A stretch of 64,000 bases of DNA, taken from the NCBI GenBank assembly GCA_000720995.1, contig JOEL01000010.1, positions 122,788 to 186,787 of the forward strand. The letters run 5' to 3'. The stretch's first letter is position 1, and every line of letters begins with the position of its first letter. A program made the position numbers and the translations under genes. The notes beneath the pieces were generated by a model. The model saw only the letters and a list, made by a program, of their open reading frames with translations, searched no databases and was not told the origin of the DNA. Source of the stretch: Streptomyces celluloflavus (lineage in GTDB: Bacteria > Actinomycetota > Actinomycetes > Streptomycetales > Streptomycetaceae). This document shows, one piece after another, positions 36,685 to 53,804 of the stretch.

Positions 36685-37383
36685 ATGCGGCGACGCCGGG
36701 CGCGGGCGGCGCTGGCCTCCCTTGCCGTGCTGGTGCCGCTCGCTCTCGGGTCGGGATGCGCGAGCCTGGAAGGGCTCAAGAGCGACGGACGGGCCAGGGA
36801 GGTGAAGGCGCCGCTCGCACTGTGGCCGGAGTATTCGCCCGCGCCGCCGAACCGCGAGGACAACCCGGCCGCCCTCAAACCCGTACCGGGCGTGCCGCGC
36901 ATCCCCGGCGGCGATATGGCGGCCGCGGACCCGCTCACCGTCCTCGACGCGGACCTGGCCGCCGAAGGACGCCCGCCACCCGATCCGAAAACCGTGCGCC
37001 GCCCCTTCCTGTACGACCTCACCGACAGCGGCAAGCCCGACCTGATCACCGTCGTCGACCTCGACCGCCGCACCAGCGAACTGCGCGTCTACAGCGTCCG
37101 GGACCAGGTCGTCACCCGCGTGCTGTTCGTGCGCGGGGTGCTGGCCGGAGTCGAACTGGCCGCCGGGCATCTCGCCGTCCGCCAGCCCACCGAGGACCCG
37201 CGTTACGTCAGCGTCACCGACTATGTCTGGAACGGCGACTCGATGGGCCTGTGGGACCTCACCCTCGACGAGGCCCGTAAGCCGACGGCCGCGCCGGGCG
37301 CGGGGACGCGGACCGCCGGTTCCCGGCGCACCGGCGCGCCCTCCGCCGCGGTGCGGCCGTCACCCCCTGGCGGCGGTCCGTGA
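36685..37383 (+). CDS. Putative lipoprotein paired with the sensor kinase
   Basis: A 232-residue exported protein. The signal MRRRRARAALASLAVLVPLALGSGC ends in the lipobox LGSGC, so it should be lipid-anchored at the membrane's outer face. The mature part has a VDLDRRTSELRVYSVRDQVVTRVLFVRGVLAGVEL core, reminiscent of a beta-propeller or FG-GAP-like strand pattern (YDLTDSGKPDLITVVD), and a disordered Pro/Ala tail. Its stop overlaps the GTG of the histidine kinase (GTGA). The coupling suggests that it senses or modulates the signal for the kinase. GGAAGG precedes the ATG at 36685. Confidence 0.8.
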   Translation: MRRRRARAALASLAVLVPLALGSGCASLEGLKSDGRAREVKAPLALWPEYSPAPPNREDNPAALKPVPGVPRIPGGDMAAADPLTVLDADLAAEGRPPPDPKTVRRPFLYDLTDSGKPDLITVVDLDRRTSELRVYSVRDQVVTRVLFVRGVLAGVELAAGHLAVRQPTEDPRYVSVTDYVWNGDSMGLWDLTLDEARKPTAAPGAGTRTAGSRRTGAPSAAVRPSPPGGGP

Positions 37384-38812: not shown

Positions 38813-40927
38813 TCACCAGTCGATGTCGTCCTCCGGCTCCGGCGGGACGCCCTCCTCCTCCGGCGGTTCCTCCAGCGCACCGGCCCCGAACGCACTGGCC
38901 CCCGGCCTGCCCGCCCTCGCCGACGACCTGCCCGGAGCCGAAGCCGGAGCCGATCCCGAGGCCGATGCTGATGCCGGCGGTGCTGACGCCGACCCCGACG
39001 TCGCCGACCCCGCCGACGCCGGATCCGAGGCGGTGCCGTCCGTCGCTCCGCCGTCCGGTTCCCGCCCCGCCAGCACGTCCAGGATCTGCGGCCCGTACTT
39101 GGCGAGCTTGTTCTCGCCGACGCCGGTGACCGTGCCCAGTTCGGCCGTGCTCGACGGCCGGGCGGTGGCGATCTCGCGCAGCGTCGCGTCGTGGAAGATC
39201 ACGTACGCCGGGACGCCCTGCTCCTTGGCGGTGCGGCCCCGCCAGGCCCGGAGGGACTCGAAGACCGGCAGCGCCTCCTCGGGCAGATCCACCGGTGCCG
39301 CCCGCCGGGACTTCGCCTTCGCCGCGCGCGGGGCCTTCTCCGGCTCCCGCCGCATCGGGACCTCGCGCCCGCCGCGCAGCACCTCGGCACTCGCCTCGGT
39401 GAGCACCAGGGTGCCGTAGTCACCCTCGACCGCGAGCAGCCCCTGTGCGAGCAACTGCCGTACCACGCCCCGCCATTCGGCCTCCCGCATATCTTCGCCG
39501 ATGCCGAAGACGCTCAGCGAGTCATGGTCGAACTGGATGACCTTGGCGGTCTTCTTCCCCATCAGGATGTCGGCGATCTGGCCCGCCCCGAACTTCTGCC
39601 CCCGCTCGCGCTGCAGCCGCACGATCGTCGAGAGCAGCTTCTGCGCGGGCACCGTGCCGTCCCACGTCTGCGGCGGGGCGAGGCAGGTGTCGCAGTTGCC
39701 GCACGGGCCGCTCTGCTGACCGAAGTACGCCAGCAGCCGCACCCGCCGGCACTGCACCGTCTCGCAGAGCGCGAGCATCGCGTCGAGATGCGCGGACAGC
39801 CGCCGCCGGTGCGCGTCGTCCCCCTCCGACCCGTCGATCATCTTCCGCTGCTGCACCACATCCTGGAGCCCGTACGCGAGCCAGGCCGTCGACGGCTGTC
39901 CGTCACGCCCCGCACGGCCCGTCTCCTGGTAGTACCCCTCGACCGACTTCGGCAGATCCAGATGTGCCACGAACCGGACGTCCGGCTTGTCGATGCCCAT
40001 TCCGAACGCGATCGTGGCGACCACGACCATGCCGTCCTCGCGCAGGAACCGTGACTGGTTCTCGGCACGGGTCCGGGCGTCCAGCCCCGCGTGATAGGGG
40101 AGCGCGTCGATTCCGTTCTGCACCAGGAACTGCGCGGTCTTCTCCACCGAGGCGCGCGAGAGGCAGTACACGATCCCCGCGTCCCCGGCGTGCTCGCTCC
40201 GCAGCAGCTCCAGCAGCTGGCGCTTCGGCTCGTTCTTCGCCGCGATCCGGTACTGGATGTTGGGCCGGTCGAAGCTCGCGACGAAGTGCCGGGCGTCCGG
40301 CATCCGCAGCCGGGAGGTGATCTCGGTGTGGGTGGCGTCGGTCGCGGTGGCGGTCAGGGCGATCCGCGGCACATCGGGCCAGCGCTCGTGCAGCATCGAC
40401 AGGGCCAGGTAGTCCGGCCGGAAGTCGTGCCCCCACTGGGCGACGCAGTGCGCCTCGTCGATCGCGAAGAGCGAGATCTTCCCCCGGTCCAGCAGATTCA
40501 GCGTCTGCTCGACCCGCAGCCGCTCCGGGGCGAGATACAGCAGATCCAGCTCCCCGGACAGGAACTCGGCCTCCACCAGCCGCCGCTCCTCCAGGTCCTG
40601 CGTCGAGTTGAGGAACCCGGCCCGCACGCCCAGCGCCCGCAACGCGTCGACCTGGTCCTGCATCAACGCGATCAGCGGTGAGATCACGACGCCCACACCG
40701 CTGCGCACCAGCGAGGGAATCTGGTAGCAGAGCGACTTCCCGCCGCCGGTCGGCATCAGGACGACCGCGTCGCCGCCCCCGATGACATGATCGATGATCT
40801 CCTGCTGGCTGCCGCGGAAGGCGTCGTACCCGAACACCCGGCGCAGCACCTGCACCGCCTCGCTCACGTCATCCGACGCGCTGTCCACATCCATGTCCAC
40901 GACCACTTCCACGTCCGCCAGAGCCAT
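38813..40927 (-). CDS. recQ: ATP-dependent DNA helicase RecQ
   Basis: A 704-residue 3'-5' superfamily 2 helicase for recombination and fork repair. Walker A is MPTGGGKS (about residues 57-64), the DEAH box is in FAIDEAHCVAQWGHDFRPDY, motif VI is QETGRAGRDG, the zinc cluster is in CGNCDTCLAPP, and an HRDC domain (ESLRAWRGRTAKEQGVPAYVIFHDATLREIA) lies near residues 570-640. The C-terminal about 60 residues are Ser/Ala-rich and acidic. I chose the ATG at 40927; the open frame continues upstream without family sequence. Confidence 0.95.
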   Translation of the reverse strand: MALADVEVVVDMDVDSASDDVSEAVQVLRRVFGYDAFRGSQQEIIDHVIGGGDAVVLMPTGGGKSLCYQIPSLVRSGVGVVISPLIALMQDQVDALRALGVRAGFLNSTQDLEERRLVEAEFLSGELDLLYLAPERLRVEQTLNLLDRGKISLFAIDEAHCVAQWGHDFRPDYLALSMLHERWPDVPRIALTATATDATHTEITSRLRMPDARHFVASFDRPNIQYRIAAKNEPKRQLLELLRSEHAGDAGIVYCLSRASVEKTAQFLVQNGIDALPYHAGLDARTRAENQSRFLREDGMVVVATIAFGMGIDKPDVRFVAHLDLPKSVEGYYQETGRAGRDGQPSTAWLAYGLQDVVQQRKMIDGSEGDDAHRRRLSAHLDAMLALCETVQCRRVRLLAYFGQQSGPCGNCDTCLAPPQTWDGTVPAQKLLSTIVRLQRERGQKFGAGQIADILMGKKTAKVIQFDHDSLSVFGIGEDMREAEWRGVVRQLLAQGLLAVEGDYGTLVLTEASAEVLRGGREVPMRREPEKAPRAAKAKSRRAAPVDLPEEALPVFESLRAWRGRTAKEQGVPAYVIFHDATLREIATARPSSTAELGTVTGVGENKLAKYGPQILDVLAGREPDGGATDGTASDPASAGSATSGSASAPPASASASGSAPASAPGRSSARAGRPGASAFGAGALEEPPEEEGVPPEPEDDIDW

Positions 40928-41484
40928 CCCTGAAGCGTACGAGTTCGCGAGTGCGCCCGCTGAGCCTGTGGACAACTCACGACCGCCGCCCGCCCCCGTC
41001 CGGCGGCAGCACCGGCCCTCCGCATCGCTGACCTGGGGCGGGAGCCCGTGTCGGTGACCGTTCACAGTGAGCGTCGCCGGCCGCCGGCCGCCCGGAAAAG
41101 GCGGCTGCAAACCCGCTTCGCGGCATCCGCGGCCACCGTCGCCTGAACCCCGTCACCCCGGTACGGCACGTCCCCGACCTGCTCCCGGCCCGGCCCCGCG
41201 CGCCGCCGACCCCGCCGTTCTCTCCCGCGGAAGCGGCTGTGACCTGCGGAGACCTCGACGCCAGGGCCGCAAGCGCCGACGTCGGTGCGTCGGGCCCGGG
41301 AGGGTGGGCCGCTGCCGCAAGACCGGGACGCCCCTGAGAGACGCGAGCGGGCGTCCCGCGATGCTTCGTCGAAGGGCCCGGACAGGAAAGTGTGCTCACC
41401 GTCGTACGGACTCCGACAGCGCCCGGCCGGTCCGCGCGGAAGAACCGCCGCGGCGACCGATCGACAAGTTTCCGGAGCCGCCCC
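40928..41484. other. 557-bp gap with one strong hairpin
   Basis: No gene is supported here. CGGGACGCCC at 41324-41333 pairs perfectly with GGGCGTCCCG at 41349-41358 around a 15-nt loop. It lies about 130 bp beyond the last gene of the lanthipeptide operon (minus strand) and is a plausible end of that transcript. Confidence 0.5.
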
Positions 41485-44103
41485 CTAACCGTCCAGCCCC
41501 GCGGCCCACCCGGAAGCCACCTCGGAGACCGGACCGGGCCTGCCGAGGACGACCAGGGTCATGGCGTCGACGGGGAACAGCTCGGCGCACGCCGCGTCGA
41601 CCTCCGCCGCCGTCGTCCGCCGCAGGAGGTCCGGGAGGCGCTCCGCCCAGTCGACCGGTCGGCCGGCGGAGGCGCCGTCGCGCAGCAGATCGGCCTTGGC
41701 CGCCGGGGAGTCGAACGCGCCGAGCAGTTGGGCGGCGCAGAAGGTACGGACCGGTTCGAGCTCGGACTCGGTGACGGGAGCGGCACGGGATGCCCGCAGC
41801 GCTTCCCGGACGGCCGCGATACCGGGTGCCGCGTCCGCCTCGGGCAGGGTCGCCCTGAGGTAGGCGCGGGAGAGGCCCAGGCAGACGTCGCGGGCGGCGT
41901 ACAGCGTGGGTTCCGGACCGGTGCCGGGGGTGCGCGTCGGCAGGTGGGACCGGTAGCGGGTGCCGGTTATCGCGGTGGCCAGATAGCGGGCCGCCGCACC
42001 GATGCCGTCCGCGGGTTCGGGCGCGCTCAGCGTCACCTGTACGTCGTGCGCGGCAGCGTGGTGGAGCGCCAGTACGGCTCTCCCCGGCCGGGCGGTCCCG
42101 GATTCCGGCGGAGCGGTCCCGGCGCCGTGGGACGCGGCGGACCAGGCGGACAGCGCCCGTTCGGCGTCGGCGGTGAACCGCTCGGGGTCGAGAGCGCCGA
42201 CGGCGGTCAGCCGGCCGCCGCCCCGCCGCAGGACCGATGCGTGCAGCGCGCCGAGGTCGCCGGGGACGGCCGCCGGGAGCGCCCGCCCCAGCCAGTGACG
42301 GCGCAGCGCGGTATCCATCACCTGCTCGGGATCGCGGCGGCGCGGCAGTGGCGTCGGCGGGGCCGCCGGGCCGTGCACCGGCGCGGCCAGGCCGGCGAGG
42401 CGCGCCAGCCAGGCACCGGTCGTGTCCGGGGTGGCGTAGCCGGTGACATCGAGCCACTGGCCGTCGGTGGCCAGTTGGAAGCTCTCGGCCTCCGTACGAG
42501 CGGCCGCCGGGTCGCGCCCGGCCAGCAGCTGAACCAGGGCCTCGACCTCGTCCGGGCGCTGCCACCCCGACGCGCCCAGCGGCAGCCGGAACCGCAGCTC
42601 CACCAGGGGGGCCCGGTCGTCCCGGACGGCCACGATGCCGGTTCCGCCCGCCGTCGTGGCCGTGTGCCGGGGCCCGTGGCTCGGCGGCGGCTGCACGCCC
42701 AGCGGGGGAATCGGGCGGGCAGCGGTGGCCGTGGCGGGAGTGGTGGCCGCGGTGGTGGTGGCGGTCCCGGTCGCTGACGCCGCCGGTGCGTTGGCGGCGC
42801 GGGGGGTCGCCGTCGTGGCCGGTACGGGGCCGGGCTCGTGGACGGGGGCGGGGCGGGTCCGGGTGGGCCCGGGGGTCATGACCAGGATCCCCTTGGGCGC
42901 CGTGCCCAGGCGGCGGGCGGCCGCGGCGACCTGTTCCGGGCCGACCCCGGCCAGCAACGCGGGGTACTCGGTGAGGAGTTCGGCGCGTCCGAACAGCAGC
43001 TCCAGACGGCCGAGAGCGCGGCTGCGCGGATACGCCTCGGCGTGCTCGCGGTGGTGCCGGGTGACGAGGCGCCGCACGGCCTGCGGCAGCGTTCGCCCGA
43101 GGTCGGCCGTGTCCGGCCAGTGCGCCCACCGCTCGGTCATCGCCGTTACCGCGTGCCGCGGTGTGCCGGCCGGCGGTACGAGGGCGGTGATGACCAGGAG
43201 ATCGGGATCCGCGGCGTCGAGCGGTCCGAAGACCCCGCAGCCGGCCGACACCGCCTGGAGGCCCGCCAGACCGTCCTGGCTGATCATGTCCGCCAGCACG
43301 GCATGGGCCAGGTAGTCCGTCATGTCCTGCCGGGGGTCGGGCAGCCGGTAGCCGAGCGCGAGGGCCGCGGCGGACACTCCGGGCTCGGTGCACGTCTGCC
43401 ACCGGTCCGCGACGAGACCGGGCTCCCGCAGCTCCGGCGCGGGGGCGAACGGGCGGGGCGGTATGTCACCGAAGTGCCGCTCGACCAGCGTCAGCAGCTC
43501 TTCGGGGGCGTGGTCACCGACCACGGTGAGGACCGCGTTGCCGGGTGCGTAGTGGGCGTCGAAGAACTCCTCGCACGCGGCGACGGTGGCGTCGCGCAGC
43601 TGCGCCACCCGGCCGTAGCCGTCGTGCGCGTTGGCGAAGCGGTCGAAGACCACGCCGGGGAGCAGCGGCCACGGCAGTCCCCCGTAAGGCCGGTCCGTCA
43701 CCGCCTGGCGGATCTCCTCCTCGATGCCGTCGAGTTGTTCGGCCAGCGTCTCCTCGGTGAACACCGGCGCCCGCATCCGGTCGGCCTCGCTGAACAGCGC
43801 GCGCTCCAGGGCCGCCGACGGGACGAGCTGGTGGTAGTCGGTGTAGTCCTGGTGCGTGGTGCCGTTGGCCCGACCGCCCAGCGGGTGGATGTGCGCGAAG
43901 AAACCGTCCGGCGGCAGGCTCGCGCTGCCGCGGAACATCAGATGCTCGAAGAGATGGGCGAACCCCTCCCGTTCGGGCCTCTCGGACCGGTACCCGACGC
44001 CGTAGTGGACGCAGACCGCGGTACGCGGCGAGTCCGGCCGGCGCTCGAAAACCACCCGCAGGCCGTTGCGGAGGGTCGTCTTGTGCACCTGGCTTGCCGT
44101 CAC
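41485..44103 (-). CDS. Fused double M16 zinc peptidase of the lanthipeptide cluster
   Basis: An 872-residue protein made of two M16 (insulinase-like) halves joined by a Pro/Ala/Thr linker of about 60 residues near position 430-490. The N-terminal half has the inverse zinc site in GFAHLFEHLMF (HxxEH) with the downstream acidic helix EETLAEQLDGIEEEI. The C-terminal half lacks HxxEH and is presumably the non-catalytic partner. Free-standing M16 pairs are known from related RiPP clusters such as pristinin. Its likely job is cutting the leader from the modified precursors, since the ABC transporter has no C39 protease domain. No signal peptide. The GTG at 44103 gives MTASQVHKTTLRNG; 13 bp separate it from the upstream gene, so it ends the operon. 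Confidence 0.88.
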   Translation of the reverse strand: MTASQVHKTTLRNGLRVVFERRPDSPRTAVCVHYGVGYRSERPEREGFAHLFEHLMFRGSASLPPDGFFAHIHPLGGRANGTTHQDYTDYHQLVPSAALERALFSEADRMRAPVFTEETLAEQLDGIEEEIRQAVTDRPYGGLPWPLLPGVVFDRFANAHDGYGRVAQLRDATVAACEEFFDAHYAPGNAVLTVVGDHAPEELLTLVERHFGDIPPRPFAPAPELREPGLVADRWQTCTEPGVSAAALALGYRLPDPRQDMTDYLAHAVLADMISQDGLAGLQAVSAGCGVFGPLDAADPDLLVITALVPPAGTPRHAVTAMTERWAHWPDTADLGRTLPQAVRRLVTRHHREHAEAYPRSRALGRLELLFGRAELLTEYPALLAGVGPEQVAAAARRLGTAPKGILVMTPGPTRTRPAPVHEPGPVPATTATPRAANAPAASATGTATTTAATTPATATAARPIPPLGVQPPPSHGPRHTATTAGGTGIVAVRDDRAPLVELRFRLPLGASGWQRPDEVEALVQLLAGRDPAAARTEAESFQLATDGQWLDVTGYATPDTTGAWLARLAGLAAPVHGPAAPPTPLPRRRDPEQVMDTALRRHWLGRALPAAVPGDLGALHASVLRRGGGRLTAVGALDPERFTADAERALSAWSAASHGAGTAPPESGTARPGRAVLALHHAAAHDVQVTLSAPEPADGIGAAARYLATAITGTRYRSHLPTRTPGTGPEPTLYAARDVCLGLSRAYLRATLPEADAAPGIAAVREALRASRAAPVTESELEPVRTFCAAQLLGAFDSPAAKADLLRDGASAGRPVDWAERLPDLLRRTTAAEVDAACAELFPVDAMTLVVLGRPGPVSEVASGWAAGLDG

Positions 44104-44116
44104 GGAACCCCCGTGG

Positions 44117-45589
44117 CTAGAGATCGATGAGGAAGCGGAGAAAGTCGCAGTAGTGGTCGAAACCGCGGTCGAAATCGTCCAGGTAGGCGGCGATGTCATG
44201 GACGTGGAGCAGGATCCGCAGCGCGGCGAGCTCCTTCCAGCGCGGGCCCAGGTCACGGCCGTACCCCTCGAACAACGCGTCGGTGAGGGACTGCCACGCC
44301 CCCTTGTCGCCGCCGACCTGCCACTGCAGCTCCACCAGTTCCCCGACCACCCAGCCCAGGTCGACGTACCAGGGCGCCAGGCAGACGTCCTCGCCGGTGA
44401 GCAGGTCGACACCGGACGGGTCGCGGCCGACGACGAGCGCGCCGAGACCGGCCGCGCCATGGGCGACGGCGGTGTCGGTGTCGGTGACCGTCCGGGTGTG
44501 CCAGGCGCGCACCTGCGCCCAGCGCTCCTCACCGAGGCTCCGGCGCACCTGCCCCTGGGCGCAGGCCGCACGCGGGTCGGCGGCCCGGCCGGTCAGCCAG
44601 TCGTCGAGCCGTGCCAGCCCCCGGGACGTCCCGGTCGGCGTCCCGGCCGGGGGCTCCAGGTCGTGCACGGCGCGCAGCAACCGGCCCAAGTGGCGCAGGG
44701 GTTCCGCCAGTTCGGCGGCGGGCCCCTGGTGCAGCAGCAGATGCGCGGCAGAGACCTCGCCGCGTACGTCGTAGCGGCGGGCCGGGCCGTCCGGGGTGCC
44801 CAGCGCCAGCCGGGCGTCGCCGAGCTCCCCGACGCCCTGGAGCAGCCGGTACATCTCACCGCCGGCGGCCCGGAAGGGCGTCGGCGCGAGCGGGCCCGGC
44901 TCGCGGCGCCAGCGGTGGCCGCCGGCCGGCAGCGCATGGCAGGAGGTCCGCAGGAGCCCGGTGCCGAACTCCGCGCCGGGCCGCGGCTGTTCGGGAGCGG
45001 CGGCCGCTGCGGCACGGTGCTCCACGAGCAGCCGGAGCGCCTCGGGCAACGGGGGCGGCACCCAGGCGTCCTCGCGCCCCGTGGTCAGGCTCCGCCCGGC
45101 GACGGGCGGCACCAGGACGACGTTGGGCCGGGCCGCCAGGGCGGCCCAGTGCCGGCGGACCGCGGCGCCTTCCAGGGCACCCGGCGGCAGCGCGGGCGCC
45201 AGGACGACCGGCGCCCGGGTGCACTGGGCGGCGAGCAGCGCCGGGCTGTCCGCCAGCCCCAGCGCGAAGCGCGCCATGAAGTGCAGGGTCGCGGGGTAGA
45301 CGAGGATGACCTCGGCCCACTCCGCCCACTCGACATGCCGTGCCGTGGACTCGTCGTCGGGCCAGACATCGGACGAGACGGCTCCGCCCACCCGGGCGCC
45401 GATGGCCTGCGGCGTCACGAACCGCTCCGCGCTCCGGGTCAGTACGACCCGGACCTCCAGGTCGGGGCAGTGCTGACGCAGCAGCTCCAGCCAGTACGGG
45501 GTGGACCAGGCATAGGCGGAACCCGTCACCACGAGGAGGAGCCGGCGCAGCCCCGGGTCGAGAACGCCGTCGTACGGCTCGTCGGTCAT
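44117..45589 (-). CDS. Cysteine decarboxylase (HFCD flavoprotein) fused to a degenerate kinase-fold domain
   Basis: A 490-residue fusion. Residues 1 to about 190 are a homo-oligomeric flavin-containing Cys decarboxylase (LanD/LxmD type): LLLVVTGSAYAWSTPYWLELL, VVLTRSAERFVTPQAIG and VILVYPATLHFMARFALGLADSP are the FMN-binding core. It should oxidatively decarboxylate the C-terminal cysteine of the precursors to an ene-thiol for AviCys/AviMeCys. Residues about 230-490 look like an aminoglycoside-phosphotransferase fold, but the HGDxxxxN catalytic loop reads HGAAGLGA, so the catalytic Asp and Asn are gone; VDLGWVVGELVEL keeps the next Asp. I infer a pseudokinase used for peptide binding or assembly. 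ATGA overlap couples it to the gene upstream. Confidence 0.8.
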   Translation of the reverse strand: MTDEPYDGVLDPGLRRLLLVVTGSAYAWSTPYWLELLRQHCPDLEVRVVLTRSAERFVTPQAIGARVGGAVSSDVWPDDESTARHVEWAEWAEVILVYPATLHFMARFALGLADSPALLAAQCTRAPVVLAPALPPGALEGAAVRRHWAALAARPNVVLVPPVAGRSLTTGREDAWVPPPLPEALRLLVEHRAAAAAAPEQPRPGAEFGTGLLRTSCHALPAGGHRWRREPGPLAPTPFRAAGGEMYRLLQGVGELGDARLALGTPDGPARRYDVRGEVSAAHLLLHQGPAAELAEPLRHLGRLLRAVHDLEPPAGTPTGTSRGLARLDDWLTGRAADPRAACAQGQVRRSLGEERWAQVRAWHTRTVTDTDTAVAHGAAGLGALVVGRDPSGVDLLTGEDVCLAPWYVDLGWVVGELVELQWQVGGDKGAWQSLTDALFEGYGRDLGPRWKELAALRILLHVHDIAAYLDDFDRGFDHYCDFLRFLIDL

Positions 45590-46548
45590 CGGGCGACCGC
45601 CGACAGCAGGGCTTCCAGCTCCGTGAGGGAGGCGCGCTCACCGTATTTGAGGTGCACCCCGGTGACGTTGAGCACGATCTCGTCCGCGCCCGCGTCCGCG
45701 AACTCCTGGAGCCGGGCGGCGAGTTCCGCCTTGTCGCCGTAGAGGAACGCGCCCCCGGACAGCAGCGCCCCGGCATTGCCGCGCGGGTCCTGCGTCGAGG
45801 TCTCGATACCGGAGCGGCGCAGCATATCGGCGTAGTGCGGCAGCATGGTGTGGCCGGTGCTGCTCACCCCCGCCAGCTCGACCGGGTCGCGGTCCGGTGC
45901 CGCGAGCGCCAGCGGCACCATCACCACCACCCGGGGCATGGGGCGGCCGGCGGCCTCGGCGCCGGCGCGCAGCGCGGGCACCACGACCTCGCGGACGTAT
46001 GCGGCCGGGGTCAGCCAGGTGATCGCGACGTCGGCGATCTCCCCGGCCAGCCGGGCCATCCGGGGCCGCAGGACGCCCAGGCCGATCTCCACGGGCGGCC
46101 GGGGTACGGGGGCGAGCTCCGCGCGGCAGGTGAAGTACTCGCCTACGTGGTCGACTTCGCCCTTCTCCAGCAGGCCGCGCATCACCGTGACGTACTCCCG
46201 CACGGCGCCGAGCTGGCTGCGGTAGGGCGCGCCCAGGAGGCTCGCCTGGAACGAGGCCGCGCCCGGCCCGAAACCGGCGACCACCGGATGGCCGCTGGCG
46301 ACCGCCAGTGAGTGGGCCTGAATGGCGGCCTGGTGGGGGTGGCGCAGCGGCATCAGGGTGACGCCGGTGCCGGTCGGTACGCGGAAGCCGCAGGCGGCGG
46401 CGTAGGTGAAGTCCTGGAACGGATCGTTCAGCAGCGCCTGCCCCTGCCAGATGCGGTGCGCGTCGCTCCACTGGGTGAGCGCCGCGTACGGCAGCAACTG
46501 CTCCGGGCGGTAGGGGACCCTCGGGGCGAGGAGGGAGTAGGTGGTCAT
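45586..46548 (-). CDS. LLM-class oxidoreductase of the lanthipeptide cluster (LxmJ-like)
   Basis: A 320-residue luciferase-like TIM-barrel protein. VPTGTGVTLMPLRHPHQAAIQAHSLAVASGHPVVAGFGPGAASFQASLLG is the cofactor region and VEIGLGVLRPRMARLAGEIADVAITW follows. In lexapeptide biosynthesis an F420H2-dependent enzyme of this family reduces dehydroalanine to D-Ala. The same role (D-Ala or D-Abu from unused dehydrated residues) is inferred here. F420 is available through fbiC in this window. Its start overlaps the ABC transporter stop (ATGA) and its stop overlaps the next gene, so the reading frames are tightly coupled. Confidence 0.85.
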   Translation of the reverse strand: MTTYSLLAPRVPYRPEQLLPYAALTQWSDAHRIWQGQALLNDPFQDFTYAAACGFRVPTGTGVTLMPLRHPHQAAIQAHSLAVASGHPVVAGFGPGAASFQASLLGAPYRSQLGAVREYVTVMRGLLEKGEVDHVGEYFTCRAELAPVPRPPVEIGLGVLRPRMARLAGEIADVAITWLTPAAYVREVVVPALRAGAEAAGRPMPRVVVMVPLALAAPDRDPVELAGVSSTGHTMLPHYADMLRRSGIETSTQDPRGNAGALLSGGAFLYGDKAELAARLQEFADAGADEIVLNVTGVHLKYGERASLTELEALLSAVAR

Positions 46549-48356
46549 CGGTCGCCTCCGGTCAGGGCCGCGGTCGTCTTCTCGGGAGTCCCCAGTGCCT
46601 GCCCGTGCACCAGCTCGGCGTACATGGGGCTGGTACGCATCAGGTCGTCGTGCCGGCCCTCGGCCGTCACCTGCCCGCCGTCCATCACGATCACGTGGTC
46701 GGCGTGGCGCACCGTGGAGATGCGGTGGGCGACCACGAGCACCGCCCGGTCCCGGCCGATCTCGTCGACGAGGCGGCGCAGCCGCAGTTCGTTGAGGGTG
46801 TCCAGCTGCGAGGACGGTTCGTCGAGCAGGACCAGCGGCGCGTCCGACAGGCTCGCCCGCGCCAGTGCCAGGCGCTGGCGCTGGCCGCCGGACAGGTCGT
46901 GGTTGCCGCCGAGCACCGTGTCGAGGCCGTCGGGGAGCCGGGTGATCTCCTCTTCCAGGCCGACGTCCCGCAACGCGCGCAGCAGGTCCTCGTCGGCCAC
47001 CGGTATCTCCCGGCCGATGGTGAGGTTGTTGCGCACGGTGTCGCGCAGCAGCGTGGCGCCCTGGTCGACGTAGGCGAGCCGGCTGCGGAGATCGGCCAGC
47101 GGCCACTGGTCCGCACCGTGGCCGAACACCTCGACGCGGCCCTCCTGCGGGTCCATGAACCGCTCGACCAGCCCGAGAACGGTGGACTTGCCGGAGCCGG
47201 AGAGCCCGACCATGGCGGTCAGCCCGGTGGCGGGGACGGTCAGATCGACCTGGTTGAGGACGGGCTCCTCGCCGTACGCGAAGCGGACCTTCTCGAACCG
47301 CACGGCGGGGGCCCCGGCGACGGGCAGCCGGGGGGCGTCGCCCGCCGCCCCGGCGTCGAGCCCCTCGGCCGGGAGGGCGAACAGGTCCTCGAAGCGCTTA
47401 CGGGCGGCCAGGCCCGCCTGGATCGTGCTCATGCCCGACATCGCCATCATCAGCGGTGCGGTGAGCTGGAAGAGGTAGAGCAGGAACGCCACGAAGGTAC
47501 TGAGCTCCAGATCGCCGCCGGCGATCCGGGCGCCGCCGCCCAGGATGACCGCCACCAGAGCGATCTGCTGGCCCAGGTTGATGACCGGGACGATCAGGGC
47601 CTCCATCGCGGACGCGCCGATCTCGCACCGGGCCACCCGCTCCGCGCGGCCGGCGAGTTCGGCCGACACGGTGCGCTCGGCACGGCACGCCTTGATGACC
47701 GTCAGCGCCTCCATCGTCGCGACGAAGTGCTCGGTGAGCGAGCCGACCTGGTTCTGGATCGCCACGTACTTGCGGCGCAGCGCGATAACGACCACCGCGA
47801 CCACGCCCACCGCGACGAGGAAGGCCGCCAGGGTGATGACGAGCAGGACCCAGTCCAGCACGCCCATGATCACCATCGTGCCCACCAGGGTGACCAGCGA
47901 CATCGGAAGCTGGATCGGACCGATGTCGACGATGCTCTTGAGCGCGGCGGCGTCGGCGGTGAGCCGCGTCGCGAGGTTCCCGGTGCCCTCCTGGCGGGCG
48001 GTGCGCAGCCCCAGGCCGATGGAGTGGCGCATGCTGCGCTCCCGCAGCCGCCAGACCATCTGGTGGCCGATCCGGGAGAGCAGATAGGTGGCCAGGGCGT
48101 TGGCGATCGCGGAGCCGAGGCCGACGGCGACCATGAGCCACGTCCACTCGGCCAGGCCGCCGCCCAGCTGGATCGCCTGGAGAAGCTTGCCGACCGTCCA
48201 CGGGAGGACCAGCGTCGCCGCCGTGGCGATCAGGGACAGTCCCAGGATGCCGGCCAGCAGCAGGCGGCGGCCGCGGAAGATCTCGCGGAGGATGAACAGC
48301 CGCTCCGGGGCTCCCTCCGTGTTCAGGACCGGTTTGTCGGTGACCGGGGCGCTCAT
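46545..48356 (-). CDS. ABC exporter (fused permease-ATPase) of the lanthipeptide cluster
   Basis: A 603-residue half-transporter. Six membrane helices lie in residues about 30-320, then the ATPase: Walker A GLSGSGKST, Q-loop YVDQGATLL, signature LSGGQRQRLALARA, Walker B PLVLLDEPSSQLD and H-loop VVAHRIST. There is no N-terminal C39 peptidase domain, so leader removal must be done by another enzyme, most likely the M16 protein. It should export the mature peptides as a homodimer and may give self-protection. AGGAGAT precedes the ATG. The methyltransferase gene ends 12 bp upstream. Confidence 0.93.
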   Translation of the reverse strand: MSAPVTDKPVLNTEGAPERLFILREIFRGRRLLLAGILGLSLIATAATLVLPWTVGKLLQAIQLGGGLAEWTWLMVAVGLGSAIANALATYLLSRIGHQMVWRLRERSMRHSIGLGLRTARQEGTGNLATRLTADAAALKSIVDIGPIQLPMSLVTLVGTMVIMGVLDWVLLVITLAAFLVAVGVVAVVVIALRRKYVAIQNQVGSLTEHFVATMEALTVIKACRAERTVSAELAGRAERVARCEIGASAMEALIVPVINLGQQIALVAVILGGGARIAGGDLELSTFVAFLLYLFQLTAPLMMAMSGMSTIQAGLAARKRFEDLFALPAEGLDAGAAGDAPRLPVAGAPAVRFEKVRFAYGEEPVLNQVDLTVPATGLTAMVGLSGSGKSTVLGLVERFMDPQEGRVEVFGHGADQWPLADLRSRLAYVDQGATLLRDTVRNNLTIGREIPVADEDLLRALRDVGLEEEITRLPDGLDTVLGGNHDLSGGQRQRLALARASLSDAPLVLLDEPSSQLDTLNELRLRRLVDEIGRDRAVLVVAHRISTVRHADHVIVMDGGQVTAEGRHDDLMRTSPMYAELVHGQALGTPEKTTAALTGGDR

Positions 48357-48368
48357 AGCAGTGATCTC

Positions 48369-49376
48369 CTAGGCCGAGAACTCGATCAACGACCGGACCG
48401 GGGTCACCGGCCCCTGCCAGGTCACCCGGAGGCCCGCCGCGCGCCCGAGTCGCGTCAGCTCCGCCACGGTCCGTACCGGCCGGGGCATCATGGCGCGCAG
48501 CAGCAGCTCCGTCCGGGCCGTGTCGTCGCTCTTCATGACGACATCCAGGCTGACGTCGGCGAGCAGCACCTTGCCGGTCCCGCCCGCGGCCTCGGCGCAG
48601 CGGCGCAGGATCGCGACCGCCTGCGCGTCGTCCCAGTCGCCGAGGATCGCCGAGAGCAGGTAGACGTCCCGGTGTGCGGGCAACGGGTCGAAGAAGCTGC
48701 CGGCCACCACCTCGCACCGGTCCTGCACACCGGCTTCGGCGATGTTCTTGGCGGCGACCCGCGTCACGCCGGGCAGATCGACGAGCGTGCCCCTCAGATG
48801 CGGATGCCCCGCCAGCAGGCTGGTCAGGATCGCGCCGGTGTTGCCGCCCACGTCGACGACGCTGCGTACGGCCGACCAGTCGTAGGCGTCGCGGATGAGC
48901 TCCGCGTCGAAGACGAGCTGCCCCAGTGCGGCGCGCTCGATCGCCTCGGCGCCGGTGGCGTCCTCGTCGAGGCTCTCCCAGTAGCTGCGGCCGAACAGCC
49001 CCACGTGTGCGGGCTCCCCGGTCCGGACGGTGTGGACCAGGCCCAGCAGCGCCGTGTCCGACCGGCCGGTCACCCCGTCCAGGCGCAGCGCCTCGCGCAG
49101 GGAGAGCGGATGGTCCGTCAGCAGCGGCCGCGCGGCGTCCCGCAGCGCGTAGCCGCCGTTTTTGTCCCGGTCCAGCAGGTCGAGCGAGACCAGGTAGCGG
49201 AGCAGGCTGTCGAGTACCTCGGTGCGGGTCCCGCAGAGCCGGGCCAGCCGCTCCGTGTCGTGCACCCCGGCGGCGATGTGGTCGGCCACACCCAGCGTCG
49301 CCGCCGCGCGGATCGCGGCCGGCCGCAGCAGGTCGGCCAGATCTGTCAGATGCCCGACATGAGCCAGGTCGTCCAT
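48369..49376 (-). CDS. SAM-dependent methyltransferase of the lanthipeptide cluster
   Basis: A 335-residue class I methyltransferase of the plant-O-methyltransferase-like architecture: an N-terminal winged-helix dimerisation domain (DLADLLRPAAIRAAATLGVADHIAAGVHDTERLARLCGT) and a SAM-binding Rossmann domain starting at VVDVGGNTGAILTSLLAGHPHLRGTLVDLPGV. In class V lanthipeptides such an enzyme N,N-dimethylates the first residue. I infer the same here, on the Ser/Thr-derived end of the N-terminal ring. The ATG at 49376 follows a GGGGGAA ribosome site. Two hairpins separate it from the precursor gene upstream. Confidence 0.88.
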   Translation of the reverse strand: MDDLAHVGHLTDLADLLRPAAIRAAATLGVADHIAAGVHDTERLARLCGTRTEVLDSLLRYLVSLDLLDRDKNGGYALRDAARPLLTDHPLSLREALRLDGVTGRSDTALLGLVHTVRTGEPAHVGLFGRSYWESLDEDATGAEAIERAALGQLVFDAELIRDAYDWSAVRSVVDVGGNTGAILTSLLAGHPHLRGTLVDLPGVTRVAAKNIAEAGVQDRCEVVAGSFFDPLPAHRDVYLLSAILGDWDDAQAVAILRRCAEAAGGTGKVLLADVSLDVVMKSDDTARTELLLRAMMPRPVRTVAELTRLGRAAGLRVTWQGPVTPVRSLIEFSA

Positions 49377-49425
49377 CGTGAGGTTCCCCCAGGTGTGTTG
49401 CGGTGCCGACGGCGTGCGAGGGCCG

Positions 49426-49455
49426 GGTGCGGGCCGCCACATGGCGGCCCGCACC
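49426..49455 (-). terminator. 14-bp perfect hairpin between precursor B and the methyltransferase gene
   Basis: GGTGCGGGCCGCCA at 49426-49439 and TGGCGGCCCGCACC at 49442-49455 are exact complements with only CA between them. On the minus-strand transcript it is the second of two hairpins after precursor B. It probably acts as a partial terminator or RNA stabiliser, so that precursor mRNA exceeds enzyme mRNA. Confidence 0.75.
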
Positions 49456-49467
49456 GGCTCAAGACCG

Positions 49468-49489
49468 GAGTGACCGAAGCCGGTCACTC
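49468..49489 (-). terminator. 9-bp hairpin directly after precursor B
   Basis: GAGTGACCG at 49468-49476 pairs with CGGTCACTC at 49481-49489 around the 4-nt loop AAGC, 11 bp past the precursor B stop. It is the first of the two hairpins met by RNA polymerase leaving the precursor genes. Confidence 0.7.
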
Positions 49490-49500
49490 GGAACGGAGGT

Positions 49501-49677
49501 TCAGCAGCCGTCCTTGACGGTCTTGGCGGAGAACTGGCTGACGATCCACGACACGGTCGCGGCACCGCAGGCCGGGGTGCTCGCCGGAGCGTTCACGGTC
49601 GCGTCGACCTGAAGCTCGGCGGAGTCGGCGTAGACCTCGTAGCCGGCGACGAGCTCCATGATGGCGGTGGTCTTCAT
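49501..49677 (-). CDS. Class V lanthipeptide precursor B
   Basis: A 58-residue precursor. Leader residues 1-32 (MKTTAIMELVAGYEVYADSA, then ELQVDATVNAPA) match the precursor A leader in the frame ELVAGYxxYxxxxELxVxA...APA. I predict cleavage after APA (residue 32), leaving a 26-residue core that starts S-T-P-A-C and ends T-V-K-D-G-C. Ser33 or Thr34 with Cys37 can give an N-terminal (methyl)lanthionine; Thr53-x4-Cys58 can give C-terminal AviMeCys after decarboxylation. Four further Ser/Thr could become dehydro or D-residues. GAAGGA lies 9 bases before the ATG. Precursor A ends 58 bp upstream, so the two are co-transcribed. Confidence 0.9.
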   Translation of the reverse strand: MKTTAIMELVAGYEVYADSAELQVDATVNAPASTPACGAATVSWIVSQFSAKTVKDGC

Positions 49678-49735
49678 GGCTTCACATCCTTCGGAAATGT
49701 CGGACTGACTGGTGGGAAAAGGTGCTGCGGGTGGT

Positions 49736-49942
49736 TCAGCAGGTCCACTCGTACGTCGCACCGCTGATGGCGCTGGCGGCCGCGCTGCACTTGACCGAGC
49801 TGGTGCGGGAGATGGCCACGGAGGCACAGATGTAGGTGGTGGCCGGAGCGCCCGCGGCGGCGCTGACGTTCAGCTCACCGGCCTCCGTGTAGGTGCTGTA
49901 GCCGGCGACGAGGTCGGTGATGACCGCGCTCTTGTTGTCCAT
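49736..49942 (-). CDS. Class V lanthipeptide precursor A
   Basis: A 68-residue precursor. The leader (residues 1-34) contains DLVAGYSTYTEAGELNVSAA and ends GAPA, aligned with precursor B. The predicted 34-residue core starts T-T-Y-I-C and ends T-Y-E-W-T-C. It has three cysteines (39, 52, 68) and many Ser/Thr, so three rings are possible: an N-terminal Thr/Thr-x-x-Cys39 ring, a middle ring to Cys52, and a C-terminal Thr63-x4-Cys68 AviMeCys. The core differs from that of precursor B throughout except at both ends, so two distinct products are expected. GAGAGGG precedes the ATG at 49942; the HopA1 gene ends 66 bp upstream. Confidence 0.9.
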   Translation of the reverse strand: MDNKSAVITDLVAGYSTYTEAGELNVSAAAGAPATTYICASVAISRTSSVKCSAAASAISGATYEWTC

Positions 49943-50008
49943 GAATATCCCTCTCGTGGAATTCTGAGATGAATCCAGGAGGCGCACTCACGCCCCCTGG
50001 AAAGCACC

Positions 50009-50992
50009 TCAGCTCGGGGCCTGTCCGGCTTCGCGGGTGTCGGGGGAATTCAGGTTGATGTCGGGGGAGTTCAGGTTGCGGGAGGGGTCGGCGGGGTCGA
50101 TATTGGCCGCGACGAGGTGGCCGTGGAGGACCCCGGCGAGGGAGTCCGGTGCGTCGGCGGTCTCCACCAGGGCCTTCGCCAGCACGCTGGCCCGGTGCTG
50201 GCCGAAGCTCAGACTGTCCATACCGGGGGAGGAGTCACGCGGCTCCCAGGCCATGGCCACACCCGGGCGGAGCCGGTGCGTGAACACCGAGGTCTCCTCG
50301 CCGATACCGGGCAGGCCGCCCACGACGTCGGCGATGTCCGCGGCGGCGTGCCGGTCCCGCTCGTCCAGATAGACGACCAGGGCATCGCGGCGCGGGTAGA
50401 GGAGCTTGCTGGAGATCACCTTCGCCCGGTATGTCAGCCGGTGCGTCTCCAGATGGCCGAGCACCGCCTGCCAGACCGGCCGCGCCGCGCTCCACTCCGC
50501 GATGTGGAGGTAGACCCGCAGCAGATCGGCGGATCGGTGCGGCCGGGTGCCCTCGACGAGGAAGAACCCGGGCGAAAGACCCGGCCGCATCGAGGTGTTG
50601 ACCACGTCGACGACGCTGCCGGCGGAGACGGGCCCCTCGGCGCGGACACGCTCGGCCGGTACCCGTACGAGGAGCCCGCCGAGCTCGACCACATGCGCTT
50701 GGTCCCCGGCCACCCGCACCAGACCGCGCGCCGTCGTCTCCCGGTGCGGTACGCCCTCGGCGAGCTCCGCCTCGAACGCGGCGTCGCGCAGCCGGAAGGG
50801 GAGCGCCCCCTCCTCCATCGTCAGGCCCGCGTGGAGCTCGTGGTAGAGCGCGTCGGACAGCAGACGCCGCAGCTCTCTGGGGGTCTCCGCCTCGATCTGC
50901 CGCCCGCCCACCGTCGCGCCGGAACGGTCCGCGGCCACCTGGACGCGGCCGGCGGCGTCGAGCAGCGCACGGGATACGGAAACGTCACTCAT
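50009..50992 (-). CDS. HopA1-domain lanthipeptide synthetase subunit (LxmY-like lyase)
   Basis: A 327-residue protein with the HopA1 (type III effector-like) fold: ELRRLLSDALYHELHAGL near residue 40, GFFLVEGTRP near 150, RVYLHIAEWSAARPVWQAVLGHLETHRLTYRAKVISSKLLYPRRDALVVYLDERDR near 165-215, and ETSVFTHRLRPGVAMAWEP near 240. In class V systems this subunit removes phosphate from phosphorylated Ser/Thr to give dehydroamino acids, working with the kinase subunit. The C-terminal about 25 residues repeat NLNSPDI twice, encoded by a 21-bp duplication at about 50039-50080. Its ATG overlaps the kinase stop (ATGA). Confidence 0.88.
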   Translation of the reverse strand: MSDVSVSRALLDAAGRVQVAADRSGATVGGRQIEAETPRELRRLLSDALYHELHAGLTMEEGALPFRLRDAAFEAELAEGVPHRETTARGLVRVAGDQAHVVELGGLLVRVPAERVRAEGPVSAGSVVDVVNTSMRPGLSPGFFLVEGTRPHRSADLLRVYLHIAEWSAARPVWQAVLGHLETHRLTYRAKVISSKLLYPRRDALVVYLDERDRHAAADIADVVGGLPGIGEETSVFTHRLRPGVAMAWEPRDSSPGMDSLSFGQHRASVLAKALVETADAPDSLAGVLHGHLVAANIDPADPSRNLNSPDINLNSPDTREAGQAPS

Positions 50993-52152
50993 CGCACTTC
51001 CTCAAATCCGAGAACGGCGGCGAACCTGTCCGGTGTGATCAGGGCGTTGCGGCCGATTCCGGCGGCGGCCCGCTCGATTCCGGAGAGCCGCTGCCCCTGC
51101 GCCGCACCGGCGACGAGCCGGTCCAGCAGATGCCAGCCGGCGAAGGACGTGGCCCGCTCGGCGAAGCCGGGGCCGGCCTCGTGGCGGGTCAGGTAGCCGA
51201 GCCAGAACCGCCGTACGAGCGGGAGCAGGCGCTCGATCTTCTCCGCGCCGCGCGTCAGCACCTGTTCGTGCGACAACTCGACGTCGGGGAACTGCACTTC
51301 GCCGTCGCCCCGGTTGGTGACGATGTCGAGAACCGAGCGGTACAGCCATTCACCGGCGAAGGCGCCCACGTCCCGGGCGGGATCCGCGGAACGGAACTCC
51401 TCCCAGTCCGCGATGACGGGCGATCCGTCGTCCCGCACCAGCAGTTGGTCCACCCGGAAGTCGCAGTGGGCGGGGACGCGCGGCGCCTCCTTCTCCCACC
51501 TCCGCAGTCTCTCCAGACCTTCGCGGAGCCCGGTGTCGTGCTGCATGAGCCGCCACGCCTCCAACTCGGCGAAGCTGAGCTCGTTGTACATGGACAGCGG
51601 GAGCGCGTGCAGCAGGCCGGGGTTCGGCAGCGCGGGTGGCGTGTCATCCATCTCGCCGACGGGGGCGGCGGCGTGCAGCGCACCGACCTTCTGCCCGACG
51701 GTGAAGGCGAGGTCCTCGCCGAACGTCTCGTCAACCATCAGTTCTGCGCCACTCTTCGCGGTCACATGGTCGAAGGCGACCAGCCCCGCGTCCCGGTCGT
51801 GGCCCAGCAGCGGCGGGACGTGGCCGGCCAGCTCGGGCACGCTCCCCACGAAGTCCTCGAACGCCAGCATCCGGCGCATTCGCGCCGCTACGTCCGGCGC
51901 GGTGCCCACCAGATGTTTGACGAATACCTGGCGCCCGCTTTCCGTGCGTCCGGACCAGGCGTGGTTCCGGCCCACCGGCGCGGACACCGAATCACGGACG
52001 AAGGCGCCGAAGCCCAGTCGATTCAGCAGTGCGTCAACTTCCGGGAACGCGTCCAGATCCGCCGGCCGGAATTTCGGTGTTTCCCTGTGCTCCTTCTTCT
52101 TCTGTTCCCCAGCGAGCGTTCCGCTGGACTCGCCCAGCTCAAAGCCCGGCAT
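50989..52152 (-). CDS. Kinase subunit of the class V lanthipeptide synthetase (LxmK-like)
   Basis: A 387-residue aminoglycoside-phosphotransferase-fold kinase expected to phosphorylate precursor Ser/Thr before elimination by the HopA1 subunit. The nucleotide lobe has VGRNHAWSGRTESGRQVFVKHL with the ATP lysine. The catalytic loop is AHCDFRVDQLLV (HxDxxxxQ, Gln in place of Asn), followed by VIADWEEFRSADPARDVGAF with the metal aspartate. The start at 52152 (MPGFELGESSG) has GGGGAG just upstream; a GTG at 52167 overlaps the better AAGGAG site and is the alternative. It is the first gene of the biosynthetic operon, behind a terminator and an inverted repeat. Confidence 0.88.
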   Translation of the reverse strand: MPGFELGESSGTLAGEQKKKEHRETPKFRPADLDAFPEVDALLNRLGFGAFVRDSVSAPVGRNHAWSGRTESGRQVFVKHLVGTAPDVAARMRRMLAFEDFVGSVPELAGHVPPLLGHDRDAGLVAFDHVTAKSGAELMVDETFGEDLAFTVGQKVGALHAAAPVGEMDDTPPALPNPGLLHALPLSMYNELSFAELEAWRLMQHDTGLREGLERLRRWEKEAPRVPAHCDFRVDQLLVRDDGSPVIADWEEFRSADPARDVGAFAGEWLYRSVLDIVTNRGDGEVQFPDVELSHEQVLTRGAEKIERLLPLVRRFWLGYLTRHEAGPGFAERATSFAGWHLLDRLVAGAAQGQRLSGIERAAAGIGRNALITPDRFAAVLGFEEVR

Positions 52153-52398: not shown

Positions 52399-53076
52399 TC
52401 AGGCGGCTTCGGGCGTCGGGGGGCCGGCCATGGGCAGCCGCGCCCGGTAGGCGACCATCGCCGCCTGTACGCGGTTGACGACCCCGAGCTTGTTGAAGAT
52501 GTCGCTCACGCAGTCCTTGACCGTGCCGGTGCCCAGCATGAGCCGGCGCCCTATGTCGGCGTTGGACAGCCCCTCGGCGATCATGGTCAGCACCTCGTGC
52601 TCCCGCGTGCTCAACGACTCGGCCATCCGGCGGGCCTCCGACGAGGCGTCGGAGTGTTCCGCGTCGTCCTCCAGCTCCGCCATCAGGAGGGAGGCGGCGA
52701 GGGTGGACAGCACGGTGTTGCCGACGGCGAGCGCACGTACCGACGCCAGCAGCTCCTCGGGGCCGGTGTCCTTCAGCAGGCAGCCGGCCGCTCCCATCCG
52801 TAAGGCGGTGAGGACGGATTTGCCGACCGCGGGCGAGGAAAGTACCGCCACCCGGGGCGGGTCGGTCAGCTCCAGCAGGTCCTTGAGCAGGGCGAAGCCG
52901 TTCGTGCCGCCCGTGCGGATGTCCAGCAGGACGACGTCGGGGCGCCAGCGCCGCGCCTCGGCGAGTGCCTCGGCCCCGCCCGCGATCCGGGCCTCCAGGT
53001 CGTCGGCCGACTCGATGATCATCCGCAGTCCGGCCCGCAGCAGCGGATCGTCGTTGACGATGAGAGTGAGGGTCAC
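52399..53076 (-). CDS. LuxR-family response regulator
   Basis: A 225-residue NarL/FixJ-type regulator. The receiver domain has the acidic pair in VNDDPLLRAG, the phosphoacceptor Asp in DVVLLDIRTGG (about residue 53), the switch serine in VAVLSSP and the lysine in CLLKDTG. The C-terminal HTH is LSTREHEVLTMIAEGLSNADIGRRLMLGTGTVKDCVSDIFNKLGV. No sensor kinase is nearby, so it may be an orphan regulator. AGGAGA precedes the GTG at 53076, which overlaps the stop of the VTT gene. Position directly upstream suggests pathway control of the lanthipeptide operon. Confidence 0.9.
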   Translation of the reverse strand: MTLTLIVNDDPLLRAGLRMIIESADDLEARIAGGAEALAEARRWRPDVVLLDIRTGGTNGFALLKDLLELTDPPRVAVLSSPAVGKSVLTALRMGAAGCLLKDTGPEELLASVRALAVGNTVLSTLAASLLMAELEDDAEHSDASSEARRMAESLSTREHEVLTMIAEGLSNADIGRRLMLGTGTVKDCVSDIFNKLGVVNRVQAAMVAYRARLPMAGPPTPEAA

Positions 53077-53804
53077 GCACGTCTCCTGGCGGCTCGCAGG
53101 CGGCCCCACGCCATCTGCACCAGGAGGCCGCCGAAGATGACCGCCAGGGATACCCACACCGCGTTCTGCGAGACGGTCTCGGCGATGTCCACCGCGGGCT
53201 GCCCGATGGCGTAGCCGAGACCGGCGTAGAGCCCGGTCCAGACGGCCCCGCCGATCAGGTTGAGCGTCAGGAAGAGCGGCAGGCCCATGCCCACCCAGCC
53301 GGCCGAGGCGAACACCAGCGGACCGGGCACCATCGGCACCCGCTCCAGCACGATGGCCGCGCCGATGATCCACCGCCTCGCCGGTGTGTCACGGGTCAGC
53401 AGGCCGAGGCGGCGCTTGGCCCTGCCGCTCTCTTCGGGGCCGGTGAGAAACCGCATCATGTTCCGGCCCCACAGCCGGCCGGCCAGCCAGAACACCCAGG
53501 CGAACTTGGTCATCCCGACGATGCCGGCGGCCATCACCAGGGCCAGCGGGGCCTCGCCGACGCGCGCGAACGCGCCCGCGGCGGTCATGGCGCTCGGTGC
53601 GCCGGTCATCGCCTCCAGGAGTACGGGATTCGTGCCGATCAGCCAGGGTTTGAGCGGCCACATGGCGAACGAATAGGCAAATACCAGCCAGATGCCGTAC
53701 CAGCAAAACAGGTCCTTCGACGAAGGCGCGCCACCCCACGGCAGCCAAGACTTGTCGAGAGGACGGGAATTGCCGACACGATCGTGCTGGGTCTCGGTGG
53801 TCAA
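53073..53804 (-). CDS. VTT/DedA-family membrane protein
   Basis: A 243-residue inner-membrane protein with about five hydrophobic segments of the VTT (SNARE-associated/DedA) family. MAAGIVGMTKFAWVFWLAGRLWGRNMMRFL and the re-entrant-loop motif VLERVPMVPGPLVFASAGWVGMG, followed by NLIGGAVWTGLYAGLGYAIG, fit the family. DedA-type proteins are lipid scramblases or exporter-like and influence resistance to membrane-active peptides, so a self-protection role is conceivable but inferred. The start is taken as TTG at 53804 with GAGG upstream; the frame is open to 53873 without a ribosome site. Confidence 0.8.
   Translation of the reverse strand: MTTETQHDRVGNSRPLDKSWLPWGGAPSSKDLFCWYGIWLVFAYSFAMWPLKPWLIGTNPVLLEAMTGAPSAMTAAGAFARVGEAPLALVMAAGIVGMTKFAWVFWLAGRLWGRNMMRFLTGPEESGRAKRRLGLLTRDTPARRWIIGAAIVLERVPMVPGPLVFASAGWVGMGLPLFLTLNLIGGAVWTGLYAGLGYAIGQPAVDIAETVSQNAVWVSLAVIFGGLLVQMAWGRLRAARRRA

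What the first reader, a model, noticed from the sequence alone, without database searches (positions are those of the whole stretch)
41485..52152. Complete class V lanthipeptide cluster with two precursors in one minus-strand operon
Seen: APH-fold kinase, HopA1 protein, two small Cys-ended peptides, methyltransferase, ABC exporter, luciferase-like reductase, HFCD flavoprotein and M16 peptidase, mostly coupled by ATGA overlaps or gaps under 70 bp. Known: kinase plus HopA1 lyase plus HFCD decarboxylase plus N-methyltransferase plus F420 reductase is the set described for class V lanthipeptides (lexapeptide, cacaoidin, pristinin). Inference: the operon makes two new methylated, AviMeCys-containing lanthipeptides.
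Basis: partly seen in the sequence, partly recalled or inferred. Interest (0 to 1): 0.92.

Follow-up and report, generated by a model that had tools for sequence, protein, structure and literature searches.

The report
Known sistertide lantibiotic gene cluster
This is a real gene cluster for two class V lanthipeptides (antibacterial modified peptides), but both peptides match the already published sistertides A1 and A2 letter for letter, so it is not a new find.

Summary
One minus-strand operon (41485-52152) encodes kinase LanK, HopA1-type lyase LanY, two LxmA-leader precursors, a methyltransferase, an ABC exporter, an LLM-class reductase, a CypD-like Cys decarboxylase and an M16 protease. Class V is right too. 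"Two new lanthipeptides" is wrong: both core peptides are letter-identical to sistertides A1 and A2 of the sis cluster of Streptomyces kasugaensis DSM40819, expressed heterologously and published in 2024 (PMC11162475). Masses computed from the window's cores with the published modifications agree with the printed ones ([M+3H]3+ 1085.2084 against 1085.2083; 816.7487 against 816.7487). Additions: the "HFCD" gene is a LanD-LanX fusion; its second half is a separate gene in other species and fits the kinase-fold AviMeCys cyclase, and such fusions are also in print (PMC12291118). Only A1 is methylated in the published work. A response regulator (52399-53373) accompanies the cluster in loci L002-L005, four of four. 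Enzyme genes could not be compared with the deposited sis genes. Open question: whether A1 and A2 must act together.

The parts
50989..52152 (-). LanK (LxmK-type) kinase, 387 aa
   Evidence: NF038156 LxmK 460.9 bits, cut-off 315; APH PF01636 33.2 bits, cut-off 23.2
50009..50992 (-). LanY (HopA1-type) lyase, 327 aa
   Evidence: PF17914 6.6e-41; solved chain 9dk1_B, named 'Lyase', 4.5e-52; the only HopA1 match in the genome at E 0.001; no NCBIfam match
49736..49942 (-). Precursor A1, 68 aa, 34-residue core with 3 Cys identical to sistertide A1
   Evidence: NF038146 LxmA leader 44.1 bits; core identity
49501..49677 (-). Precursor A2, 58 aa, 26-residue core with 2 Cys identical to sistertide A2
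   Evidence: NF038146 LxmA leader 34 bits; core identity
48369..49376 (-). Methyltransf_2-family methyltransferase, 335 aa; inferred N-terminal N-methyltransferase, same Pfam family as CaoSC
   Evidence: PF00891 6.8e-29, PF08100 9.9e-11; CaoSC is PF00891 and N,N-dimethylates (PMC11447909 passages)
46545..48356 (-). ABC exporter, 603 aa
   Evidence: PF00664, PF00005
45586..46548 (-). LLM-class, probably F420-dependent reductase, 320 aa; inferred Dha to D-Ala reduction
   Evidence: PF00296 2.6e-32; TIGR03564 130.8 bits, below its cut-off 234.25; SisR and D-Ala in PMC11162475; start
44987..45589 (-). LanD half (about residues 1-201) of the 490-aa fusion: Cys decarboxylase
   Evidence: PF02441 1.9e-16; NF033753 CypD 97.5 bits, below cut-off 215; solved cypemycin decarboxylase 6jdd_A 2e-27
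44117..44986 (-). LanX half (about residues 202-490): probable kinase-fold AviMeCys cyclase; the border between the halves is approximate
   Evidence: No Pfam or PDB sequence match of its own at E 0.01; separate frame in L007 and L008 and separate match in 9 genomes of the genus; conserved HxxD (H462, D465) and E417, E420
41485..44103 (-). M16 peptidase with M16 and inactive-M16 domains, 872 aa; inferred leader peptidase
   Evidence: PF00675 1e-16, PF05193 1.6e-16; start
52399..53373 (-). NarL/LuxR-type response regulator, possibly the cluster's regulator
   Evidence: PF00072, PF00196; match beside the cluster in L002-L005

Best explanation
This is the sistertide (sis) cluster, or an allele of it with identical core peptides. 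LanK phosphorylates Ser/Thr of both precursors, which share an LxmA-type leader; LanY eliminates phosphate to give Dha/Dhb; Cys thiols add to make (Me)Lan rings; the LanD half decarboxylates the C-terminal Cys; the LanX half closes the AviMeCys ring with the Thr five residues before it; the reductase turns selected Dha into D-Ala; the M16 protease removes the leader; the methyltransferase dimethylates the N-terminus of A1; the ABC protein exports the products. Shown in print for these exact cores: products, masses, and rings and methyl groups of A1. Shown here: gene content, core identity, mass agreement, D-X fusion. Inferred from relatives: the role of each single enzyme.
For: Both cores letter-identical to the printed sistertide cores; computed [M+3H]3+ 1085.2084 and 816.7487 match the printed calculated values 1085.2083 and 816.7487. 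LxmK equivalog and two LxmA leaders over cut-off. HopA1, flavoprotein, LLM, Methyltransf_2, M16 and ABC. Same gene order in L002-L005. LanX as AviMeCys cyclase and D-X fusions in PMC12291118; CaoSC in PMC11447909.
Against: The CypD and LLM NCBIfam matches fall below their curated cut-offs and the HopA1 protein has no NCBIfam match. No structure could be predicted, so the kinase fold of the LanX half is inferred from sequence and gene context.
Confidence: 0.96

Rival explanations
1. A new class V cluster making two new peptides.
For: The class V gene set is real.
Against: Both cores are identical to published sistertides.
Confidence: 0.02
2. Beyond the above, the cluster makes a two-component class V lantibiotic: A1 and A2 are weak alone and act together.
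For: PMC11162475: purified A1 had MIC over 64 ug/mL for the seven strains of its Table 1, while extract of the strain making both inhibited M. luteus; its authors suggest combined action. A1-type and A2-type precursors occur together in L002-L005, and a related pair in L006 and L009.
Against: Sistertide A2 is not in that MIC table (low yield), so the extract may owe its activity to A2 alone; kebanetides A1 and A2 of the same family are each active alone.
Confidence: 0.3
3. The C-terminal half of 44117-45589 is a second active kinase and not a cyclase.
For: LanX proteins are annotated as kinase homologues (PMC12291118).
Against: The stretch that I take for the APH catalytic loop (motif recalled) reads HGAAGLG, without the Asp of HxD (sequence; H377 and G378 invariant in the seven aligned proteins). 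HxxD and Glu like the RosX cyclase residues are conserved.
Confidence: 0.05

Closest known systems
Sistertide (sis) cluster, Streptomyces kasugaensis DSM40819 (PMC11162475)
   Same: Both core peptides identical letter for letter; two precursors with 3 and 2 Cys; a methyltransferase and an oxidoreductase are named in the text
   Different: No difference seen, but enzyme sequences, leaders and gene order could not be compared
Kebanetide (keb) cluster, S. kebangsaanensis DSM42048 (PMC11162475)
   Same: Same sis family, two products with three and two rings
   Different: Different masses; each kebanetide is active alone
Cacaoidin (cao) cluster (PMC8068269 passages, PMC11447909 passages)
   Same: HopA1 protein, kinase, CypD-related protein, Methyltransf_2 N-methyltransferase, M16 protease with active and inactive domains, AviMeCys from Thr five residues before the terminal Cys
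   Different: One precursor named, glycosylation genes, LanX (Cao14) and LanD (CaoD) named as separate proteins
Rosin (ros) cluster (PMC12291118, part 1 and passages)
   Same: Kinase, lyase, LanD, LanX, F420 reductase, M16 proteases
   Different: LanD and LanX separate, three precursors, no N-methyltransferase, two proteases, three transporters

Membership tests
Class Va lanthipeptide cluster | Stand-alone LanK kinase (PF01636) | tested here: met
   APH 33.2 bits, cut-off 23.2; LxmK equivalog over cut-off
Class Va lanthipeptide cluster | Stand-alone LanY lyase (PF17914) | tested here: met
   140.5 bits, cut-off 22.7
Class Va lanthipeptide cluster | LanD Cys decarboxylase | tested here: met
   Flavoprotein 60.5 bits, cut-off 22.7; 6jdd_A cypemycin decarboxylase 2e-27; but NF033753 CypD below its cut-off
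Class Va lanthipeptide cluster | LanX kinase-fold cyclase | tested here: inconclusive
   Fused half with separate homologues; HxxD and Glu conserved but Glu-His spacing 45 or 42 against 49 in RosX; no RosX or LxmX sequence was compared; structure tool off
Class Va lanthipeptide cluster | LxmA-type leader, and C-terminal Cys with Thr five residues before it | tested here: met
   NF038146 over cut-off for both; sequences
Sistertide (sis) cluster | Core sequences of SisA1 and SisA2 | tested here: met
   Identical over 34 of 34 and 26 of 26 residues (against the text)
Sistertide (sis) cluster | Product masses 1085.208 and 816.749 [M+3H]3+ in the strain | not testable with these tools
   Computed from the cores they agree; LC-MS is a bench test
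Sistertide (sis) cluster | Enzyme genes identical to the published sis genes | not tested

The most novel reading that the evidence does not exclude
One promiscuous enzyme set makes a true two-component class V lantibiotic: A1 (three rings, methylated) and A2 (two rings, unmethylated) act together. In two Nonomuraea relatives the cysteines are even divided between the partners: one peptide keeps only an internal Cys and the other only the C-terminal Cys.
Probability: 0.25. Interest if true: 0.4.

Novelty: already known. Interest (0 to 1): 0.1.

Why it matters
It closes the finding: no discovery claim should be built on it, since core peptides and products are in print. Its remaining use is as a system to test synergy of two class V peptides made by one enzyme set, and the effect of fusing decarboxylase and cyclase.

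Tried and rejected
New-product reading: rejected, cores identical to published ones. A second class V locus in the genome: none found; one HopA1 match at E 0.001 and two LxmA-leader matches at E 0.1, all in this cluster. D-X fusion as a new feature: rejected, stated in PMC12291118. Naming the host: not done; a paper search on S. kasugaensis (26 papers, 8 listed, listing only) gave no test, and warns that records very near the window's genome may be left out. Explaining why A2 is not methylated by the CaoSC rule of a planar residue at position 2 (PMC11447909, passages): not enough, since A2 has Thr at position 2 of its core and as many dehydrations (7) as Ser plus Thr (7). Paper search for LanX, LanD, class V and fusion: 1,769 papers held three of the terms, 15 listed, one of them relevant (the word 'land' matched). 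Paper search for HopA1, lanthipeptide and Nonomuraea: no paper.

Full report
Observation. The window lies in a genome of 8,676,521 bases in 193 contigs; that it is a Streptomyces is my inference from the closest named relatives. Nine minus-strand genes run from 52152 down to 41485 in the order K-Y-A1-A2-M-T-J-DX-P. Three junctions overlap by 4 bases, four have gaps of 12 to 66 bases, and A2-M is 124 bases. Against a perfect fit: no NCBIfam match for the HopA1 protein, and CypD and LLM matches below cut-off.

Identity. PMC11162475 (section 8 read whole, passages elsewhere) prints the cores of SisA1 and SisA2 from Streptomyces kasugaensis DSM40819. The window's two ORFs end in exactly these 34 and 26 residues. 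With the modifications printed there (A1: 11 dehydrations, one decarboxylation, 10 H, 2 CH2; A2: 7 dehydrations, one decarboxylation, 6 H), the computed [M+3H]3+ values are 1085.2084 and 816.7487, against printed calculated values of 1085.2083 and 816.7487. That paper reports heterologous expression of the whole cluster, NMR of A1 (AviMeCys from Thr29/Cys34, N,N-dimethyl MeLan) and 42 clusters of this family. A search for 'sistertide' found one paper, this one; a 2025 review mentions the work under the spelling 'sisteride' (PMC12328550, one passage). The published leaders and enzyme genes were not available to me for comparison.

Mechanism. Dehydration by LanK and LanY, decarboxylation by LanD and AviMeCys closure by LanX follow PMC12291118 (part 1 of 6 and passages). 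The methyltransferase is a PF00891 protein, the family of CaoSC, which N,N-dimethylates N-termini and has no similarity to LxmM or CypM (PMC11447909, passages); I did not compare the sequences directly. In print A1 is dimethylated and A2 is not. The reductase fits the D-Ala reported for A1. Roles of the single enzymes in this window are inference.

The fused gene. The 490-aa product of 44117-45589 matches known decarboxylases only in about its first 190 residues; the rest has no Pfam or PDB sequence match at E 0.01. In L007 (S. flaveolus) and L008 (Kitasatospora) the frame of the first half ends and the second half lies in another frame. Of 295 genomes of the window's genus (own included), 33 have a match at 1e-30; 2 of these 33 (own and G090) match over residues 1-490 in one piece, and 9 have a separate match of the second half, each in a different reading frame from the first-half match by the coordinates. 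In two further genomes (G159, G241) a match runs part-way into the second half (12-300 and 5-350, with a stop codon inside). The search scored five candidates per genome listed and the cut-off is strict, so these are lower bounds; one search shows weaker second-half matches (31-35% identity) beside the first half in several of L021-L032. H462 and D465 (HxxD), E417 and E420 are invariant in the seven aligned fused proteins, and the same motifs can be read in L007 and L008. RosX needs Glu220, His269 and Asp272: the His-Asp spacing of 3 agrees, the Glu-His spacing is 45 or 42 here against 49. PMC12291118 already notes D-X fusions. The structure tool was off.

Relatives. Of the 11 loci, L002-L005 (S. 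diastatochromogenes, S. nigrescens, S. huiliensis, Streptomyces sp. CB00316) hold the full order, with a match to the response regulator at 52399-53373. L006 and L009 (Nonomuraea) hold all but the regulator on the stretch held; L008 gave no methyltransferase match and only a partial transporter match on the other strand; L007 is cut by the contig end and lacks K, Y and the regulator. L010 (Prauserella) has only weak K, Y and first-half matches (27, 29 and 43%); L011 and L012 (archaeal) only weak decarboxylase and ABC matches.

Verdict. Real, correctly classed as class V, and already published. Interest is low. What remains open is whether the two peptides act together: A1 alone was inactive up to 64 ug/mL while extract was active, but A2 is not in the MIC table and both kebanetides are active singly.

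Noticed in passing
L006:5019-5231, L006:5279-5500; L009:5511-5723, L009:5771-5992: In two Nonomuraea species one precursor has a single internal Cys and no C-terminal Cys, and its neighbour has only the C-terminal Cys, with Thr five residues before it. The paired ORFs have equal length in the two species and differ mostly at third codon positions (16 of 25 and 21 of 28 differing bases), so they look real. No paper in the library holds HopA1, lanthipeptide and Nonomuraea together.
   Followed up: partly
L003:5271-6040 and L007:149-900: The S. nigrescens locus carries one A1-type and two A2-type precursors; L007 carries two nearly identical A2-type precursors and, between them, a third one that runs into an unknown residue.
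   Followed up: no
52399-53373: NarL/LuxR-type response regulator upstream of the kinase, matched beside the cluster in L002-L005; no match in L006, L008 and L009, and L007 is cut there.
   Followed up: partly
38813-41110 and 37380-38783: Flanking genes: RecQ-type helicase (DEAD, RQC, HRDC) and a histidine kinase, probably outside the cluster.
   Followed up: no
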